In this document: piece after piece, positions 220 through 13,737 of the stretch | Layout: every line of letters starts with the position of its first letter | How positions within the stretch are numbered: the stretch's first letter is position 1 | From: Burkholderiaceae bacterium | Lineage (GTDB): Bacteria > Pseudomonadota > Gammaproteobacteria > Burkholderiales > Burkholderiaceae_E | DNA: 45,273 nucleotides | Direction of reading: 5' to 3' | Assembly (NCBI GenBank): GCA_023384005.1 | Contig: JAHDXY010000006.1 | Span: 1-45,273 of the forward strand | Notes under the pieces: generated by a model | Database searches by the model: none | Seen by the model: the letters and a program-made list of their open reading frames with translations, nothing else | What the model was told of the DNA's origin: nothing | Position numbers and translations under genes: made by a program

Positions 220-999
220 TCACGCGTTGGCCTCGGTTGCAGCTACCGCAGTGGCCGACGGTTTGGCGACGGCGTCCAAGTAGTCCGCCCACCACTGCAT
301 CAGGCGGGTCCGCTCCTCGAATCGGTCACCCCGGTCGTATGCGCCCTTGACCTTGTTCTGTTCGGTGTGGGCCAAGGCGCGTTCCACGGCGTCGACGGAC
401 CACATGCGATGCTTCTTGCCGTCGATCTCCGTGACGGCCTCGTTGAGGATCGTCGAGGCCAGGGCGCGGAAGCCGTGGACGGTGGTGCGTTTGTGGAAGC
501 CCATCCGGTAGACGGCGAAGATCATGGTGTTCTGGCTTGCCGGTTTGTCTTCGAGCCGGCCAGGCATCAGCCACTGCGAGTGGCCGGTGACCTTGTGCAG
601 TTCCTCGAGCGTGGCGAGCGCTTGCTGCGGGAGAGGCACGCGGTGTTCGCGGCGGTTCTTCATCCGCTCCGCTGGAACTACCCACACCCCTTCCTCACGG
701 TCAAACTCGGTCCACTTTGCTTCGCGGACCTCGCTGGTGCGAGCGAGGGTGAGAATCAGGAGGCGCAGACCCAGGCGTGTCGCCGCGTCGCCGTTATAGG
801 CATCGAGTGCGCGCAGAAACGCAGCCGGGCCACGACGATCCGGGTGCTCCGTGGGATAGCGGCGCAATCGGAAGACGCGGCAATTGTTACCGCTGTGAAT
901 GGTGCATTGGGCACATTCAGCGACTTGGTTCCGAATGCGGAGGCACCTTCGGGCAACTAGCAGTCTGGCCCGTGGCGCAGGGCAACCTTCGCCAGCCAC
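220..999 (-). pseudogene. 5'-truncated P4-type tyrosine integrase
   Basis: The catalytic half of a phage/island tyrosine recombinase is recognisable from about residue 50 (position ~850) to the stop. The Arg of LARTSEVREAKW, the Lys of the MKNRREHRVPL beta-hairpin segment, HGFR (His-x-x-Arg), the His of ALAHTE and the Tyr nucleophile in AYDR are all present, followed by the typical QWWADYLDA end. The N-terminal arm-binding and core-binding regions, about 180-200 residues in P4-type integrases, are missing. The first ~50 residues of the open frame do not resemble an integrase. The gene therefore looks deleted at its 5' end and probably inactive. It lies downstream of tRNA-Arg on the same strand, the usual site for such genes. 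Island decay is inferred. Confidence 0.75.
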
Positions 1000-1220: not shown

Positions 1221-1297
1221 TGGCGCGCCCGGCAGGATTCGAACCCACGACCCCCTGGTTCGTAGCCAGGTACTCTATCCAACTGAGCTACGGGCGC
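1221..1297 (-). tRNA. tRNA-Arg (anticodon ACG)
   Basis: Read on the minus strand, the gene begins GCGCCCGTAGCTCAGTTGGA and ends CGGGCGC-G-CCA. The acceptor stem GCGCCCG/CGGGCGC pairs perfectly. The anticodon stem CCTGG/CCAGG encloses the loop CTACGAA, giving anticodon ACG. The T-arm contains GGTTCGAATCC and the CCA is encoded. The gene is 77 nt long. ACG is the main arginine anticodon for CGN codons in bacteria and is normally edited to ICG. Its 3' end is a likely integration site for the element whose remnants lie at 1-999. Confidence 0.95.
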
Positions 1298-1372: not shown

Positions 1373-2038
1373 TCAATCGAGCGCGCTTCGGGGGCCGCGA
1401 CCCGCGAGCGCGGTGCGCATCAGGTCGGCCATCGTCCTGGCGCCGAGCTTGTGCATCAGGTTGGCGCGGTGTGCTTCCACCGTCTTTATGCTGATCGTCA
1501 GGTCGTCGGCGATCTGCTTGTTCAGGCGTCCCGCGACGATCAGGTCCAGAACCTGTCGTTCGCGCGCGGTCAGCCGTGACAGACGCTGCGCGGCTTCGCG
1601 GTCGGCGTTCGCGCTGGCGTGCTCGGCGTCGCACCGATTCAGGCACTGTCGCACCAGCGCGCACAACTGCTCTTCGCTGAACGGCTTCTCGATGAAATCC
1701 ACGGCGCCCTTTTTCACGCAGTTCACGGCCATCGGGACGTCGCCGTGACCGGTGATGAACACCTGCGGAACGCGGATGTCCATGCGGATCAGTTCGTCCT
1801 GCAACTCGAGCCCGGACATGCCCGGCATGCGCACGTCCAGAAGGAGGCAACCTGCGTCATCGAGGCGCGCCGTCAGGCGGGCCCGTGCAAGGAGCTGATC
1901 CGCGCCTGGCAGCACGACCACCTCGAAAGCGTTCGCCTCGAGCAGCCAGCGCAGCGAGTCGCGCACTGCCTCGTCGTCGTCGACGACATAGACGGCGCGG
2001 CGCTTGCTCGAATCGGCGCTCGTTTCGTTCGCAGTCAT
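1373..2038 (-). CDS. FixJ-type response regulator (receiver + LuxR HTH)
   Basis: This is a 221-residue two-component response regulator. The receiver domain (about residues 15-125) has the acidic pair in VVDDDEA, phospho-acceptor Asp68 in LLLDVRMPG, the ITGHGD switch segment and Lys118 in EKPF. The C-terminal LuxR/FixJ helix-turn-helix (about 150-215) includes LTARERQVLDLIVAG and a KTVEAHRANLM recognition helix. The ATG at 2038 starts 29 nt after the stop of the upstream sensor kinase on the same strand, so the two should be co-transcribed. The frame stays open far upstream, but that part is a shadow of the kinase gene. FixJ/DctR/TodT-like regulators control nutrient-responsive promoters; the target here is unknown. 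Confidence 0.9.
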   Translation of the reverse strand: MTANETSADSSKRRAVYVVDDDEAVRDSLRWLLEANAFEVVVLPGADQLLARARLTARLDDAGCLLLDVRMPGMSGLELQDELIRMDIRVPQVFITGHGDVPMAVNCVKKGAVDFIEKPFSEEQLCALVRQCLNRCDAEHASANADREAAQRLSRLTARERQVLDLIVAGRLNKQIADDLTISIKTVEAHRANLMHKLGARTMADLMRTALAGRGPRSALD

Positions 2039-2067: not shown

Positions 2068-4260
2068 TCAGGCCGCACGCGTCATCGCGTGCGTGTCGGC
2101 CGCCGGCAGGGTGAATCGGAACTCGCAACCGCCGCTCGGGGTCGCTTCGACCCAGAGCCGGCCGCGATGTGCTTCGACGATCGAGCGGCAGATGTTCAGG
2201 CCCATTCCCATCCCCTCGGACTTCGTCGTGAAGAACGGCTCGAACAGCCGCGACCGCGCCTCGGACGAGAGGCCGGGACCGGTGTCGGAAACGGAGAATT
2301 CCACCTGCGCGTCGCGCCTGGTGGCCTGCACGCGAAGCGTGCGCCGCCGTGCTCCGCTCATCGCGTCGATCGCGTTCTTCGCGAGGTTCAGCAGAACCTG
2401 TTCGATCAGGATCGGGTCGGCATAGACCGGGGCGACCGAGGGATCGATCTCGATTTCGATACGCACCCCGCGTCGGCGCGCGTCGATCTCCGCAAGTCCG
2501 ATTGCCTCGGCGACGATCTCGGAGACCTTGCACCACCTGCGCTCGGGTTCGCTGCGCTTGACGAAGGCGCGAATCCGCTGAATCACCGTTCCCGCGCGCT
2601 CGGCCTGGGCAGCGGCCTTGGACAGGGCCTCGAGCGTCTCTTTCGGTTCGATCTCGAGCGCGGCGGATTGCCGGGTCCGGATTCTCGCGCTCAGGCCCAT
2701 GCAGTAGTTCAGGATCGCGGTGAGCGGCTGGTTCAGCTCGTGCGCCAGCGACGATGCCATCTCTCCCATGGTCACCAGTCGCGCAGTGCGCTGCAGCTTC
2801 TCCTCCTGCTCGCGATGCCGCTCTTCCGCCTCGTGACGTCGCGTGACTTCCGTCGCGACGACCAGGCGCGCCTGGCGACCGTCGACCCAGCGGATCAGCC
2901 TGGGCCTGAGGTCGAACCAGCGCCCGCTCGCAGGAAGGAGCAGTTCGCGCACTTCGCCGTCGCCAAGCGACGGGTCCGACGCCGCCATGACTGCGGCGAG
3001 GTCTTCGCTGTCGCCGAACATCTGGCGGCAAAGGCGGTTGGTGAACAGCGCTGAGTCCTTGCTCGCGCCGGACCCGCCCGCGAGCTCGACTTGCGGATCC
3101 GCCAGCGCGAGAACCAGCACCGCCGCGTCGAGTTCGTCGAGCACCTTGGCGAAGCGTTCGTGCGCCTCGGCAAGTTCCTCGCGCACCCGCCGCGGTTCGG
3201 TGATGTCGGTGACCGAGGTCATCCACCCGGTCTGCACGCCTTGTCCGTCGATCAGCGGGGAAACGTACATCCGGGCGTCGAACATCGATCCGTCCTTGCG
3301 GCGCACCTGGACCTCGAACCCGGACTGCGGCGCATGACCGGCCAGCACCATGTCCATGTTGGTCTTGTGCAGCGCTTCGCGTCCGCGCGGCCAATACGGA
3401 TAGGGCGGCAGGGTCCCGATCAGTTCGTCGCGACGATAGCCGATCATCTTGCTGAACGCGCGGTTCACGTAGGTGATGCGGCCGTCCATGTCGAAGGCGC
3501 GCATCCCCGTGAGGATCGATTCCTCCATCGCCTGCCTGAAGGCGGTTTCGGCGCGCAACGCCGCCTCGGCGGCCTTGCGCTCGGTGACGTCGTGCGCGAC
3601 GGCATACCAGGTAGTCGATCCGGGGTCGGGGTCGCGCCGCATCGACCAGTGCAACCAGCGCCATCCAATCCCGTCGGCGAGTCGCGCCTCGATACTTACC
3701 TGGGTGTCGGACGTTCGATCGTCGACGCGCAGCGCCTGGGCGAGTTGCTCGCGATCGTCCGGGTGCACGAAGTCAAAGAGGAGCGCGCTGCCGAGCTCGG
3801 CTCCCACGAGCGTCTCGAATGCGGGGTTCGCGCGGTGCACTCGGCCGGAAGCCCCGAGCACGCACATCAGGTCCTGCGAGAGCCTGAACAGGCGGTCGCG
3901 CTCGGCCTCGGCCATGATGCGCCGACGCGCGTGGCGCCAGAGAAGCACCAGGCTCAGCAGGCTCGCCGCCGATAGCGCAAACACCGCGAGCACCAGGTTA
4001 TGCTCGATCCGGTGCGGTTGCGGATCGAGCGCGTCGGCGCGCAGCCGCACGCCGTGGCCCGGAGGGTCGAGCATTGGCGCGTAGCCGAGTCGCGAAGGCG
4101 CCCCCGAAGCCGATTGCGGCCCGACGATCACGTTGCCCGCGCCTGCAGTGATCGCTACCCGGTAGTTTGGCCGCACGTCTGGCGGGAGCGCGGCGCCGAG
4201 CATGCGGTTCAGCGAGTACCCGACGACCAGGGCCCCCGCTACACCGGTGTCGCGCAGCAT
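2068..4260 (-). CDS. PAS sensor histidine kinase, main part (downstream of an in-frame stop)
   Basis: This 730-residue open frame holds the C-terminal part of a periplasmic sensing segment, a membrane helix (~87-108), three PAS-like regions (~120-235, 240-355, 360-480), a HisKA box with the phospho-accepting His in SLAHELNQPLTAI, and an HATPase domain (NLAKNAIDAM, DTGPGLS, FEPFFTTK, GMGMGLNICRSIV). It is in the same frame as the 175-residue piece at 4267-4794, with a single TAA (4267-4269) and two codons between them. The first residues (APMLRDTGVAGALVVGYSL) read like the middle of a DctS-type sensor domain, not a natural N-terminus. Either the kinase is a recent pseudogene, or it restarts at ATG 4260, or the stop is a sequence error. 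It forms a pair with the regulator at 1373-2038. Confidence 0.8.
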   Translation of the reverse strand: MLRDTGVAGALVVGYSLNRMLGAALPPDVRPNYRVAITAGAGNVIVGPQSASGAPSRLGYAPMLDPPGHGVRLRADALDPQPHRIEHNLVLAVFALSAASLLSLVLLWRHARRRIMAEAERDRLFRLSQDLMCVLGASGRVHRANPAFETLVGAELGSALLFDFVHPDDREQLAQALRVDDRTSDTQVSIEARLADGIGWRWLHWSMRRDPDPGSTTWYAVAHDVTERKAAEAALRAETAFRQAMEESILTGMRAFDMDGRITYVNRAFSKMIGYRRDELIGTLPPYPYWPRGREALHKTNMDMVLAGHAPQSGFEVQVRRKDGSMFDARMYVSPLIDGQGVQTGWMTSVTDITEPRRVREELAEAHERFAKVLDELDAAVLVLALADPQVELAGGSGASKDSALFTNRLCRQMFGDSEDLAAVMAASDPSLGDGEVRELLLPASGRWFDLRPRLIRWVDGRQARLVVATEVTRRHEAEERHREQEEKLQRTARLVTMGEMASSLAHELNQPLTAILNYCMGLSARIRTRQSAALEIEPKETLEALSKAAAQAERAGTVIQRIRAFVKRSEPERRWCKVSEIVAEAIGLAEIDARRRGVRIEIEIDPSVAPVYADPILIEQVLLNLAKNAIDAMSGARRRTLRVQATRRDAQVEFSVSDTGPGLSSEARSRLFEPFFTTKSEGMGMGLNICRSIVEAHRGRLWVEATPSGGCEFRFTLPAADTHAMTRAA

Positions 4261-4266
4261 CGGCGC

Positions 4267-4794
4267 TTACATTTCGAACCCCATCTCGTCGTCGAAGGCG
4301 TGAAAGGGCGCGGTATAGGTCGGTCGGCGCAGTTCGCGCGCGCGATCGAAGGCGTCGACGCCCTCGGCTTCGACCACCTGGCTGCGTTCGGCCCGAAACG
4401 GTATCGAAGCGACTCCCCTGGCGGCGAGCGTCCAGCGCACGCGCCGGTCCGGTGCGATCACGCTCACGTACAGGGCGTCGTGGTTGCGGCGCAGGAAGTC
4501 CTGGATCGCCTCGAGCACGCGCCCGGTTGGCGCCGTGATCGTGGACACGTCGGCCGACGCGCTCACCATCGCATCCTGATTCTCGCGAAGCCTCAGCTTG
4601 ATCGCCTGCAGGGCGGCGTCGACGTCGCGATACAGGGCTTGGCGCTGCCGGTCGTCGGCGGCTTCGTTCAGGTACCAGAAGAAACTGACGACCAGAGCGA
4701 CGAACAGCGCCAGCCCGAAGACGTGCGCGAGGGTAAACAACTTGATCGCGCGAAGCTCTACGCCCGGCGCGGGGGGCAGGTGACGGTCGCTCAT
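4267..4794 (-). CDS. N-terminal piece of the split sensor kinase
   Basis: This 175-residue frame has a short cytoplasmic start, one membrane helix (~18-41, containing FGLALFVALVVSFFWYL) and an extracytoplasmic region ending at MGFEM-TAA. Such a region with one leading helix is the first half of a DctS-like sensor module, and the second half continues in frame after the stop at 4260. Alone, this piece would be a single-pass membrane protein without a kinase domain. The ATG at 4794 is 207 bp from the divergent aceE start. The two pieces together would give about 908 residues, normal for a multi-PAS kinase of this kind. Confidence 0.7.
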   Translation of the reverse strand: MSDRHLPPAPGVELRAIKLFTLAHVFGLALFVALVVSFFWYLNEAADDRQRQALYRDVDAALQAIKLRLRENQDAMVSASADVSTITAPTGRVLEAIQDFLRRNHDALYVSVIAPDRRVRWTLAARGVASIPFRAERSQVVEAEGVDAFDRARELRRPTYTAPFHAFDDEMGFEM

Positions 4795-5001: not shown

Positions 5002-7710
<2,709 letters not shown>

Positions 7711-9130: not shown

Positions 9131-9703
9131 ATGACCACGATCGTCGTCGTGCGCAAGGCCGGGCAAGTCGCGATCGCCTCGGATTCGCTAGTCACGTTCG
9201 GCGAGTTGCGGCTGTCGGGCGACTACGAAGCCAACGAGAAGATCATCAAGGTCGGCGACTCGTATATCGGACTGGCGGGCAGCACCGCGCATTTCTCCGT
9301 GGTTCGACGCCTGCTGGAGTCGACCGATCATCTCGAACTCCACTCGCGCGACGAGGTGTTCGATACCTTCCTTCGGGCGCACACGCAACTGAAGGAGAAG
9401 TACTTCCTCAACCCGAAGGAGGACGAGGACGATCCCTACGAGTCCTCGCAGATCACCGCGGTGATCGCCAATCCCAGCGGGATCTTCGGGGTCTACTCGC
9501 TTCGCGAGGTGTTCAAGTTCGAGCGGTTCTGGGGAATCGGGTCGGGGCGCAACTTCGCGCTGGGTGCGATGCACGCCAGCTACGACCGGCTGCGCTCGGC
9601 GCGCGCGATCGCCCGGGTGGGCGTCCTCGCCGGCACCGAATTCGACAAGAACTCAAGCGGCCCGATCAGGGCCTTCAGTTTCGGTGAGAAGGCAGGCCAA
9701 TGA
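9131..9703 (+). CDS. Proteasome-like Ntn hydrolase, BPH type
   Basis: This 190-residue protein begins MTTIVVVRKAGQVAIASDS, the pattern of HslV and proteasome beta subunits. After Met removal it would expose an N-terminal Thr nucleophile (codon 2). Asp18 matches proteasome Asp17, and Lys37 in ANEKIIKVGDS is the likely counterpart of Lys33. A GLAGST segment and GSGRNFALGAMHASYD follow, as in the beta-subunit fold. There is no HslU partner, and the overall sequence fits the self-compartmentalising betaproteobacterial proteasome homologue (BPH) better than HslV. The gene sits between aceF (10-nt gap) and lpd (ATGA overlap), so it is translated with the pyruvate dehydrogenase subunits. Peptidase activity and substrates are inferred, not shown. 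Confidence 0.8.
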   Translation: MTTIVVVRKAGQVAIASDSLVTFGELRLSGDYEANEKIIKVGDSYIGLAGSTAHFSVVRRLLESTDHLELHSRDEVFDTFLRAHTQLKEKYFLNPKEDEDDPYESSQITAVIANPSGIFGVYSLREVFKFERFWGIGSGRNFALGAMHASYDRLRSARAIARVGVLAGTEFDKNSSGPIRAFSFGEKAGQ

Positions 9704-11642: not shown

Positions 11643-12203
11643 TTGAATGCACTGCTTCGGTTCTCGCGGGCGATCGACGCTGTGAACAGCGCAATCGGGC
11701 GAACGGTGTACTGGCTGATCCTGATCGCGGTGCTGGTGAGTGCGACCAACGCGACGCTGCGCTTCACGGTGAACATCGCATCGAACGCGTGGCTCGAGTT
11801 GCAGTGGTACCTGTTCTCGGCGGTGTTCCTGCTGTGCGCCGGCTACACCTACCTGCACAAGGCGCACGTTCGCATCGACCTCGTCGCGGGCCGTTTCAGC
11901 TTTCGCACGCAGGCCTGGATCGACGTCGTCGGGATCATCCTGTTCATGCTGCCACCGTGCGCGCTGATCCTGTGGCATGGCTGGGACGCGTACCTGCTGG
12001 CGTGGACGACCAACGAGCAGTCGAGCGACGCGGGCGGGCTGGTGCGCTGGCCGGTGAAGCTGCTGATTCCGGTGGGTTTCGCGCTGCTGATCGCGCAGGC
12101 GCTGTCGGAACTCGTCAAGCGGATCGCGTTTCTGAAGGGACTGATCGAGTGGAGCCCGCCGGGGCACCAGACCGAGGAACCGGCATCGGCTGGCGGCCAG
12201 TAA
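11643..12203 (+). CDS. TRAP transporter small permease (DctQ family), set 1
   Basis: This 186-residue membrane protein has four predicted helices (around residues 20-40, 53-72, 95-118 and 138-158) and the conserved NAWLELQWYLFSAVFLL segment of the DctQ family. No ATG is available near the N-terminus; the start is taken as TTG 11643, with AGGGGA a few bases upstream. The gene lies 56 nt after lpd on the same strand, with no clear terminator between, so read-through from the PDH operon is possible. Together with the large permease downstream it forms a sodium-coupled TRAP permease that lacks an adjacent binding protein. The TakP-like protein at 17763-18851 is the likely partner. Confidence 0.88.
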   Translation: MNALLRFSRAIDAVNSAIGRTVYWLILIAVLVSATNATLRFTVNIASNAWLELQWYLFSAVFLLCAGYTYLHKAHVRIDLVAGRFSFRTQAWIDVVGIILFMLPPCALILWHGWDAYLLAWTTNEQSSDAGGLVRWPVKLLIPVGFALLIAQALSELVKRIAFLKGLIEWSPPGHQTEEPASAGGQ

Positions 12204-12237
12204 GAACGGCACAAGAACAAGACGGGCGAGCACCGGA

Positions 12238-13737
12238 ATGAATTTCTCGGACGAGATGATGGCGCCGGTGATGTTCGCCGGCCTGGCGGTGATGCTGCTT
12301 ACCGGCTTCCCGGTGGCCTTCGCGCTGGCGGCCAACGGGATGCTGTTCGCGTTCATCGGGTTCGAGATGGGCCTTCTGCAGCCGGAGCTGCTGCAGGCGC
12401 TGCCGCAGCGGCTGTTCGGAATCATGGGCAACCAGGTGCTGCTTGCGATTCCGTTTTTCACGTTCATGGGGATCATCCTAGAGCGCTCGGGGATGGCCGA
12501 GGATCTCCTGGACACGGTCGGTCAGTTGTTCGGCAAGGTACGCGGCGGGATTGCGTACGCGGTGATCTTCGTGGGCGCACTGCTTGCCGCGACGACAGGG
12601 GTGCTGGCGGCGTCGGTGATCGCGATGGGGCTGATTTCGCTGCCGGTGATGCTGCGTTACGGCTACGACGGGCGCATCGCCGCGGGCGTGATCTGCGCCT
12701 CGGGCACTCTCGCGCAGGTGCTGCCGCCTTCGCTGGTGCTGATCGTGATGGCCGACGTGCTCGGGGCGTCGGTGGGCGACATGTACCTCGGATCGGTCCT
12801 TCCGGGGCTGATGCTGGTGGCGATGCTGGCCATCTTCATTTTTCTGGTGACGGTGTTCAAACCGAAGATGCTGCCCGCGCTTCCGCCCGAGTATCGCCGG
12901 CTGCGCGGCGCGCCGTTGTACCGGCACGCCCTCGTGGTGATGGTGCCGCCGCTGGTGCTGATCTTCCTCGTGCTGGGCACGATCTTCATGGGCGTGGCCA
13001 CGCCGACCGAGGGCGGGGCGATGGGTGCGGTGGGCGCGCTCGGGCTGGCACTGGCGAAGCGCAGACTCGACTGGAAGCTGCTCAGGCAGGCGAGCCATTC
13101 GACCGCGCTGCTCAGCTCCTTCGTGATGTTCATCCTGATCGGTTCGACCGTGTTCGCGCTGACCTTTCGCGCGGTCGACGGCGACCTGTGGGTCGAGCAC
13201 CTGTTCGTGCAGATTCCGGGCGGGCAGCTAGGCTTCATCATCGTCGTCAACACCATCATCTTCCTGCTCGGATTCTTCATCGACTTCTTCGAGATCGCGT
13301 TCATCGTGCTGCCGCTGCTCGCGCCGGTGGCCGACAAGATCGGGCTGGACCTGGTCTGGTTCGGCGTGATGATCGGGATGAACATGCAGACGTCGTTCCT
13401 CACTCCGCCGTTCGGATTCGCGCTCTTTTACCTGCGAAGCGTCGCGCCCAGCGAGATCACGACGATGCAGATCTACAAGGGCGTCGTTCCGTTCGTAATC
13501 GTCCAGCTGATCGCGCTGGCGCTGGTGGTCTCGTTCCCGGCGCTCGTGTACACGCTGACCGGCGGGAAAAAGGTGGTGGACACCACCGGCGTGAAGATAG
13601 AGATCCCGAAGAACGACTACACCACGGGTGGCGGTGGCGGGATCTACGGCCCGGGGGCCAACCCCTACGCACCCTCGGGCCCCTCCGACCAGGGCGGCAC
13701 GACACCCGCTCAGGCGGCTCCGGGCACGCAGAAGTAG
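12238..13737 (+). CDS. TRAP transporter large permease (DctM family), set 1
   Basis: This 499-residue polytopic protein of the DctM/ion transporter superfamily has many hydrophobic helices and conserved segments LLAIPFFTFMGIILERSG, ASGTLAQVLPPSLVLI, ATPTEGGAMGAVGAL and LTPPFGFALFYLRSVAPSEIT. The last is typical of the mannitol/chloroaromatic/2-oxoacid branch associated with TakP-type binding proteins. The final ~45 residues (after KNDYTTGGGGG) form an unusual Gly/Pro/Ala-rich hydrophilic tail. The gene starts 34 nt after the small permease. It ends 18 nt from the convergent cyclase gene. Confidence 0.92.
   Translation: MNFSDEMMAPVMFAGLAVMLLTGFPVAFALAANGMLFAFIGFEMGLLQPELLQALPQRLFGIMGNQVLLAIPFFTFMGIILERSGMAEDLLDTVGQLFGKVRGGIAYAVIFVGALLAATTGVLAASVIAMGLISLPVMLRYGYDGRIAAGVICASGTLAQVLPPSLVLIVMADVLGASVGDMYLGSVLPGLMLVAMLAIFIFLVTVFKPKMLPALPPEYRRLRGAPLYRHALVVMVPPLVLIFLVLGTIFMGVATPTEGGAMGAVGALGLALAKRRLDWKLLRQASHSTALLSSFVMFILIGSTVFALTFRAVDGDLWVEHLFVQIPGGQLGFIIVVNTIIFLLGFFIDFFEIAFIVLPLLAPVADKIGLDLVWFGVMIGMNMQTSFLTPPFGFALFYLRSVAPSEITTMQIYKGVVPFVIVQLIALALVVSFPALVYTLTGGKKVVDTTGVKIEIPKNDYTTGGGGGIYGPGANPYAPSGPSDQGGTTPAQAAPGTQK

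What the first reader, a model, noticed from the sequence alone, without database searches (positions are those of the whole stretch)
4261..4272. Single in-frame TAA splits a PAS sensor kinase
The 175-residue and 730-residue pieces share one reading frame and are separated only by TAA plus two codons. Reading through the stop gives a continuous DctS-like extracytoplasmic domain (MGFEM-stop-APMLRDTGVAGALVVGYSL). A point mutation (for example CAA to TAA), an assembly error, stop read-through or translational restart at ATG 4260 could explain it. The downstream response regulator is intact.
Basis: seen in the sequence. Interest (0 to 1): 0.6.

Follow-up and report, generated by a model that had tools for sequence, protein, structure and literature searches.

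The report
Nonsense-interrupted AccS-type sensor kinase gene
A bacterial gene for a carbon- and redox-sensing kinase beside the pyruvate dehydrogenase genes carries one stop codon in the middle of its sensor domain, which looks like an ordinary recent one-base interruption (or a base error in a draft genome) rather than a new kind of split protein.

Summary
On the minus strand, TAA at 4269-4267 separates a 175-codon frame from a 730-codon frame in the same reading frame, two codons before ATG 4260. Relatives have one continuous gene: 93 of 93 relative frames that reach this position read through it. The gene is an AccS/BphP-type kinase, followed by its FixJ-like regulator and divergent from aceE (73 of 80 loci). 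The stop lies inside a beta-strand of a CACHE-like sensor domain. There, 31 of 64 orthologues have Tyr codons, one base from TAA, against 6.4% of codons generally; none has CAA. Strongly conserved sensor positions survive on both sides (12 of 12 at 90%, 17 of 21 at 80%), and no second lesion was seen. This fits a recent single-base nonsense change or a base error in this 507-contig draft; no reads were available to decide. Read-through is unlikely. Restart at ATG 4260 is poorly supported but not excluded, because the isolated AccS kinase module works in Azoarcus (PMC6456745) and six sensor-less orthologues occur. Low interest.

The parts
4267..4269 (-). in-frame TAA stop (residue 176 of the read-through frame)
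4267..4794 (-). upstream piece, 175 aa plus stop: first membrane helix and first part of the sensor domain
2068..4260 (-). downstream piece, 730 aa plus TGA stop: rest of the sensor domain, second membrane helix, PAS region, HisKA, HATPase_c
4252..4284 (-). codons of the predicted beta-strand (residues 171-181) that the stop interrupts
   Evidence: AlphaFold2 model, block 171-180 mean pLDDT 97
4657..4755 (-). first hydrophobic segment (residues 14-46)
   Evidence: hydropathy scan
3934..4002 (-). second hydrophobic segment (residues 265-287)
   Evidence: hydropathy scan
3187..3498 (-). PAS domain (best PAS_4 stretch, residues 433-536)
2551..2769 (-). HisKA (residues 676-748, His685)
2098..2418 (-). 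HATPase_c (residues 793-899)
1373..2038 (-). intact FixJ/LuxR-type response regulator, accR-like, 221 aa
4912..7710 (+). aceE, pyruvate dehydrogenase E1, divergent neighbour (an ATG lies at 5002)

Best explanation
A single-copy accS/bphP-type sensor kinase gene has recently taken a one-base nonsense change in the codon for residue 176, in the core of its extracytoplasmic CACHE-like sensor domain. Translation then ends at 175 residues, giving a membrane-anchored half domain that should not fold (inferred). The PAS and kinase parts remain encoded but are made, if at all, only from weak downstream starts (inferred). The effect expected is loss, or loss of sensing, of the kinase that feeds the AccR-like regulator next door. 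Shown: frame, position, continuity in relatives, domain layout, conserved positions kept. Inferred: recent event, loss of function.
For: 93 of 93 relative frames that reach the column are open there (five genomes appear twice, judged by equal contig lengths). Of 20 matching genomes among 60 relatives, 20 have an open frame over the match. 31 of 64 non-redundant orthologues have TAT or TAC there, one base from TAA, against 917 of 14400 codons in the same stretch of the same genes. TAA is a rare natural terminator in this genome: 4 of 92 long coding-like frames in the sample. The gene is single copy in the assembly. Strongly conserved sensor columns kept: 12 of 12 at 90%, 17 of 21 at 80%; cytosolic 171 of 176 at 90%. 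The stop sits inside a confidently modelled strand.
Against: No reads were available, so a base error cannot be told from a real allele. The same-genus relatives have His there (CAC), two bases from TAA, so a Tyr ancestor in this lineage is assumed. The lack of a second lesion also fits an artefact. The sensor region of this gene has diverged about twice as fast as its cytosolic part (ratio 2.04), but 2 of 14 intact relatives exceed that and a third has 1.98, so it does not show relaxed constraint.
Confidence: 0.5

Rival explanations
1. The stop is a consensus or assembly base error, or a minority-strain base, in a draft genome; the organism has the ordinary full-length kinase.
For: The assembly is a 507-contig draft, 90.6% complete with 4.5% contamination. 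It has N-gap frame breaks (C497, C164) and odd joins (C335, C411), and another otherwise clean gene with a single in-frame stop, a peptide-ABC ATPase with TAG in C377. Conserved positions intact, no second lesion.
Against: No N in the window. Single-stop splits are not common in this assembly: 2 of 261 matches to four Pfam families carry an internal stop (for ABC_tran 150 of 233 candidates were scored). Of 15 other TAA/TAG same-frame junctions in the sampled 532 kb, 12 are clearly two different genes, 3 undecided, none shown to be a split (19 TGA junctions not checked).
Confidence: 0.36
2. A working split: the 730-aa piece is made by termination-reinitiation at ATG 4260 (or a later start) and acts as a sensor-less AccS kinase.
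For: In Azoarcus the isolated AccS autokinase module (AccS') restores succinate-dependent repression in an accS null mutant (PMC6456745, section 6). Six of 80 loci carry accS-position kinases with no large extracytoplasmic domain (L069, L070, L074, L075, L078, L084). The stop-to-start gap is 6 nt. The kinase part stays conserved.
Against: ATG 4260 has no Shine-Dalgarno pairing (dG +0.1; 79% of 2051 internal ATGs are as strong or stronger), although the gene's own ATG 4794 is not strong either (-2.2). Reinitiation falls steeply with distance and natural coupled pairs mostly overlap by 4 or 1 nt (PMC10666635, abstract). The piece keeps an 86-residue half domain before its only membrane helix, which would have to cross the membrane without the first helix (inferred). 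No relative shares this boundary. TAA is a rare gene end here.
Confidence: 0.08
3. Stop read-through or recoding makes the full-length kinase.
For: Both sides of the sensor stay conserved and the frame continues.
Against: Read-through is reported as least at UAA in bacteria (PMC5289835, passages). None of the 22 tRNAs that ARAGORN named among 23 Rfam hits has a UUA anticodon (set incomplete). No relative frame that reaches the column keeps a stop there, so nothing suggests a conserved recoding site.
Confidence: 0.03

Closest known systems
AccS/AccR of Azoarcus sp. CIB (PMC6456745)
   Same: About 900 aa, two membrane segments around a ~220-residue extracytoplasmic region, PAS region, HisKA/HATPase, adjacent FixJ-like regulator, location by aceE; 42-44% identity over most of the length to Azoarcus, Aromatoleum and Thauera homologues at the same locus in most cases.
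   Different: Interrupted by TAA in the sensor domain; one of the three redox cysteines (AccS Cys697 position) is Leu, the Cys694 and Cys863 positions are Cys.
BphP/BphQ of Acidovorax sp. KKS102 and Burkholderiales relatives (named in PMC6456745)
   Same: Same order of bacteria, divergent from aceE, same regulator type.
   Different: The paper says BphP-type kinases lack PAS-1; this one has the longer cytosolic region of AccS.
Six sensor-less accS-position orthologues (L069, L070, L074, L075, L078, L084)
   Same: Kinase next to an accR-like gene without a large extracytoplasmic domain, as the 730-aa piece would nearly be.
   Different: They are single complete genes with their own membrane helices; no interrupted half domain.
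Ordinary single-nonsense pseudogenes or alleles in bacterial genomes
   Same: One in-frame stop, rest of the frame intact, relatives continuous.
   Different: Nothing tested sets this case apart.

Membership tests
AccS/BphP-type sensor kinase | Located by the pyruvate dehydrogenase genes and directly followed by an accR-like regulator | tested here: met
   Regulator 1373..2038(-) follows the kinase, aceE diverges. In relatives the kinase and regulator occur together in 79 of 80 loci; aceE is in 75 of 80, divergent in 73.
AccS/BphP-type sensor kinase | Extracytoplasmic domain between two membrane helices | tested here: met
   Met only for the read-through frame: hydrophobic segments 14-46 and 265-287, CACHE-like fold. 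In the frame as it stands the domain is cut at residue 175.
AccS/BphP-type sensor kinase | HisKA plus HATPase_c kinase module with phospho-accepting His | tested here: met
   Pfam HisKA 676-748, HATPase_c 793-899, His685
AccS/BphP-type sensor kinase | Three PAS motifs (AccS) or lacking PAS-1 (BphP) | tested here: inconclusive
   Pfam PAS_4 gives two stretches; a third PAS was not resolved, though total length and alignment fit AccS.
AccS/BphP-type sensor kinase | Three conserved redox cysteines (AccS Cys694, Cys697, Cys863) | tested here: not met
   Cys, Leu, Cys at these positions; at the Cys697 position 35 of 70 non-redundant relatives have Cys, 9 have a gap, the rest another residue. Membership therefore rests on position and architecture; the quinone switch as described for AccS is not claimed.
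Programmed stop read-through / recoding | Stop codon conserved at the site in relatives | tested here: not met
   0 of 93 relative frames that reach the column have a stop there.
Natural two-gene split | Relatives encode two proteins with the same boundary | tested here: not met
   0 of 93; the six sensor-less kinases begin near the membrane helix, not at this boundary.
DctS/DctR | Orthology to DctS of Rhodobacter and control of a dctPQM transporter | not tested
   No DctS sequence was compared. A dctQM pair lies at 11643-13737(+), but no regulatory link was tested.

The most novel reading that the evidence does not exclude
The stop is fixed in the population and useful: it disconnects an AccS-type kinase from its extracytoplasmic (organic-acid type) sensor, leaving a kinase restarted by termination-reinitiation that answers only to cytoplasmic or redox cues, a snapshot of how the sensor-less accS orthologues could have arisen.
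Probability: 0.07. Interest if true: 0.4.

Novelty: new member of a known kind. Interest (0 to 1): 0.13.

Why it matters
As an interrupted gene it is ordinary. The useful by-products are a better name for the kinase (AccS/BphP-type, tied to aceE in betaproteobacteria) and the prediction that its sensor has a CACHE-like fold close to KinD, which was crystallised with pyruvate; a pyruvate or organic-acid ligand is an untested guess. If the stop proved real and fixed it would be a small natural experiment on uncoupling this kinase from its external sensor.

Tried and rejected
Gln codon CAA as origin: none of 64 non-redundant orthologues has CAA; in the full set of 100, two do. Relaxed constraint of the sensor as proof of a real, older loss: pairwise identities looked suggestive (N piece 40-43% to six same-genus sequences that share 54-66% among themselves apart from two close pairs), but on a fixed tree the sensor/cytosol branch ratio of 2.04 is exceeded by 2 of 14 intact relatives (G033 2.51, G020 2.08) with G035 at 1.98, and some nodes of that tree are weakly supported. 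At the 80% threshold 4 of 21 conserved sensor columns differ, rank 18 of 65 sequences; at 90%, 0 of 12. So this was dropped.

Conserved in-frame TGA in other homologues: one search flagged 9 listed rows with one TGA; the five held as loci (L148, L153-L156) show no stop inside the alignment; the other four (G393, G165:C2, G202, G414) were not re-examined. The listing was cut, and many of its matches cover only the PAS and kinase parts, so it does not test the stop column in all 142 matching genomes of 399.

A literature search for a sensor kinase with a premature stop and reinitiation found no paper holding all three terms; that is not evidence that none exists.

Papers: PMC6456745 abstract, passages and sections 6 and 11 (part 1 of 2); PMC5289835 abstract and passages; PMC10666635 abstract and outline. 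Others were seen as listings only.

Full report
What is there. On the minus strand a frame of 175 codons (4794-4270) ends in TAA at 4269-4267; after two codons (GCG, CCG) an ATG at 4260 opens a 730-codon frame that ends in TGA at 2070-2068. Read through, the two give 908 residues with the stop at residue 176. Both pieces have the codon usage of this genome in this frame and not in the other two frames of the strand. The window has no N. It lies in a draft genome of 4.82 Mb in 507 contigs, 90.6% complete and 4.5% contaminated, in which the sensor piece has one match.

What gene it is. The C-terminal piece has PAS, HisKA and HATPase_c. A FixJ/LuxR-type response regulator follows at 1373..2038 and aceE runs the other way from 4912/5002. 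In 80 loci fetched with the 730-aa piece, kinase and regulator occur together in 79, aceE is present in 75 and divergent in 73 (a locus cut by a contig end can lack a gene for that reason). This is the arrangement described for AccS/AccR of Azoarcus sp. CIB and BphP/BphQ (PMC6456745, sections 6 and 11 part 1). AccS is 903 aa with a periplasmic region between two membrane segments, a PAS region and a kinase module; the read-through frame fits that. One redox cysteine is not kept, so I claim position and architecture, not the quinone switch. The nearest named relative in the scan is Quisquiliibacterium transsilvanicum (L022, 58% in the best segment).

Relatives are continuous. Among 60 relatives, 20 match the 175-aa piece, each in one open frame of 752-1038 aa (one is cut by a contig end). 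Seven do not reach it: six sensor-less kinases and one cut contig. In 64 non-redundant sequences with the sensor: Tyr 31, His 20, Gln 4, Phe 4, others 5. Tyr codons are one base from TAA: 31 of 64 here, against 917 of 14400 codons in the same stretch. The same-genus sequences have His codons, so the Tyr ancestor is an inference.

Where the stop falls. AlphaFold2 on 45 aligned sequences (mean pLDDT 89.5, pTM 0.79) puts residues 171-181 in one strand, and block 171-180 has mean pLDDT 97. Foldseek's best solved structures are the sensor of sporulation kinase KinD (4jgq_A, E 3.5e-8; a KinD entry with pyruvate, 4jgp_B, E 1.8e-7), chemoreceptor domains and DctB (3e4p_B, E 1.0e-6). So the TAA cuts one domain through its sheet, not between domains.

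Is it decaying? Strongly conserved sensor columns are kept: 12 of 12 at the 90% level (3 before, 9 after the stop); at 80%, 17 of 21 (6 of 9 before, 11 of 12 after). In the cytosolic part 171 of 176 are kept at 90%. Terminal-branch ratios show a fast sensor (2.04 times the cytosolic part), but two intact relatives are faster and a third is close. So there is no firm sign of decay: the stop is recent, or not real.

Is the assembly at fault? Four Pfam families in the own genome gave 261 matches, 2 with an internal stop: a TAG in an otherwise clean peptide-ABC ATPase (C377) and a TAA in a permease fragment whose frame is also broken around it (C3). Two other ABC genes break at runs of N. In 532 kb (the window plus 40 stretches) 36 same-frame junctions look coding on both sides. 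Apart from this one and C377 (fetched because it was flagged), 15 end in TAA or TAG; scanned piece by piece, 12 join two different families and 3 are undecided. The 19 TGA junctions were not scanned. Single-stop splits are therefore present but rare, which leaves both a real allele and a base error possible.

Could the two pieces work? ATG 4260 lacks Shine-Dalgarno pairing (dG +0.1; 79% of 2051 internal ATGs are as strong or stronger). Reinitiation after a stop depends steeply on distance (PMC10666635, abstract); here it is 6 nt. For: the isolated AccS kinase module restored repression in an accS null mutant (PMC6456745, section 6), and six of 80 loci have kinases in this position without the large sensor (starts chosen by script). 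Read-through is least at UAA (PMC5289835, passages), and no UUA-anticodon tRNA is among 22 named (an incomplete set).

Verdict. A one-base nonsense interruption of an accS/bphP-type gene, real and recent (0.50) or a sequence error (0.36), with a working split at 0.08 and read-through at 0.03. Ordinary; low interest.

Noticed in passing
window 9131-9703 (+): A betaproteobacterial proteasome homologue (BPH) gene sits between aceF and lpd (5ovu_A, E 3.6e-74). BPH was also found in 11 of 80 loci, beside aceF in each (29 of the 80 hold aceF's catalytic part; others may be cut).
   Followed up: partly
window 220-999 (-) and 1221-1297 (-): An integrase fragment (PF00589) lies beside a tRNA-Arg(ACG) gene near the contig start, as at the edge of an integrated element.
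   Followed up: no
window 11643-13737 (+): A dctQ-dctM TRAP transporter pair follows lpd.
   Followed up: no
L180 2108-3157 (+) (G000:C377): A peptide-ABC ATPase is split by a single in-frame TAG at 2450-2452 in an otherwise clean frame.
   Followed up: partly
L203 and L204 (G000:C335, C411): A permease end follows a solute-binding gene in another frame, and an ABC ATPase end follows another gene in another frame: possible chimeric joins or remnants.
   Followed up: no
L069, L070, L074, L075, L078, L084: accS-position kinases without the large extracytoplasmic domain, next to an accR-like gene and near aceE.
   Followed up: partly
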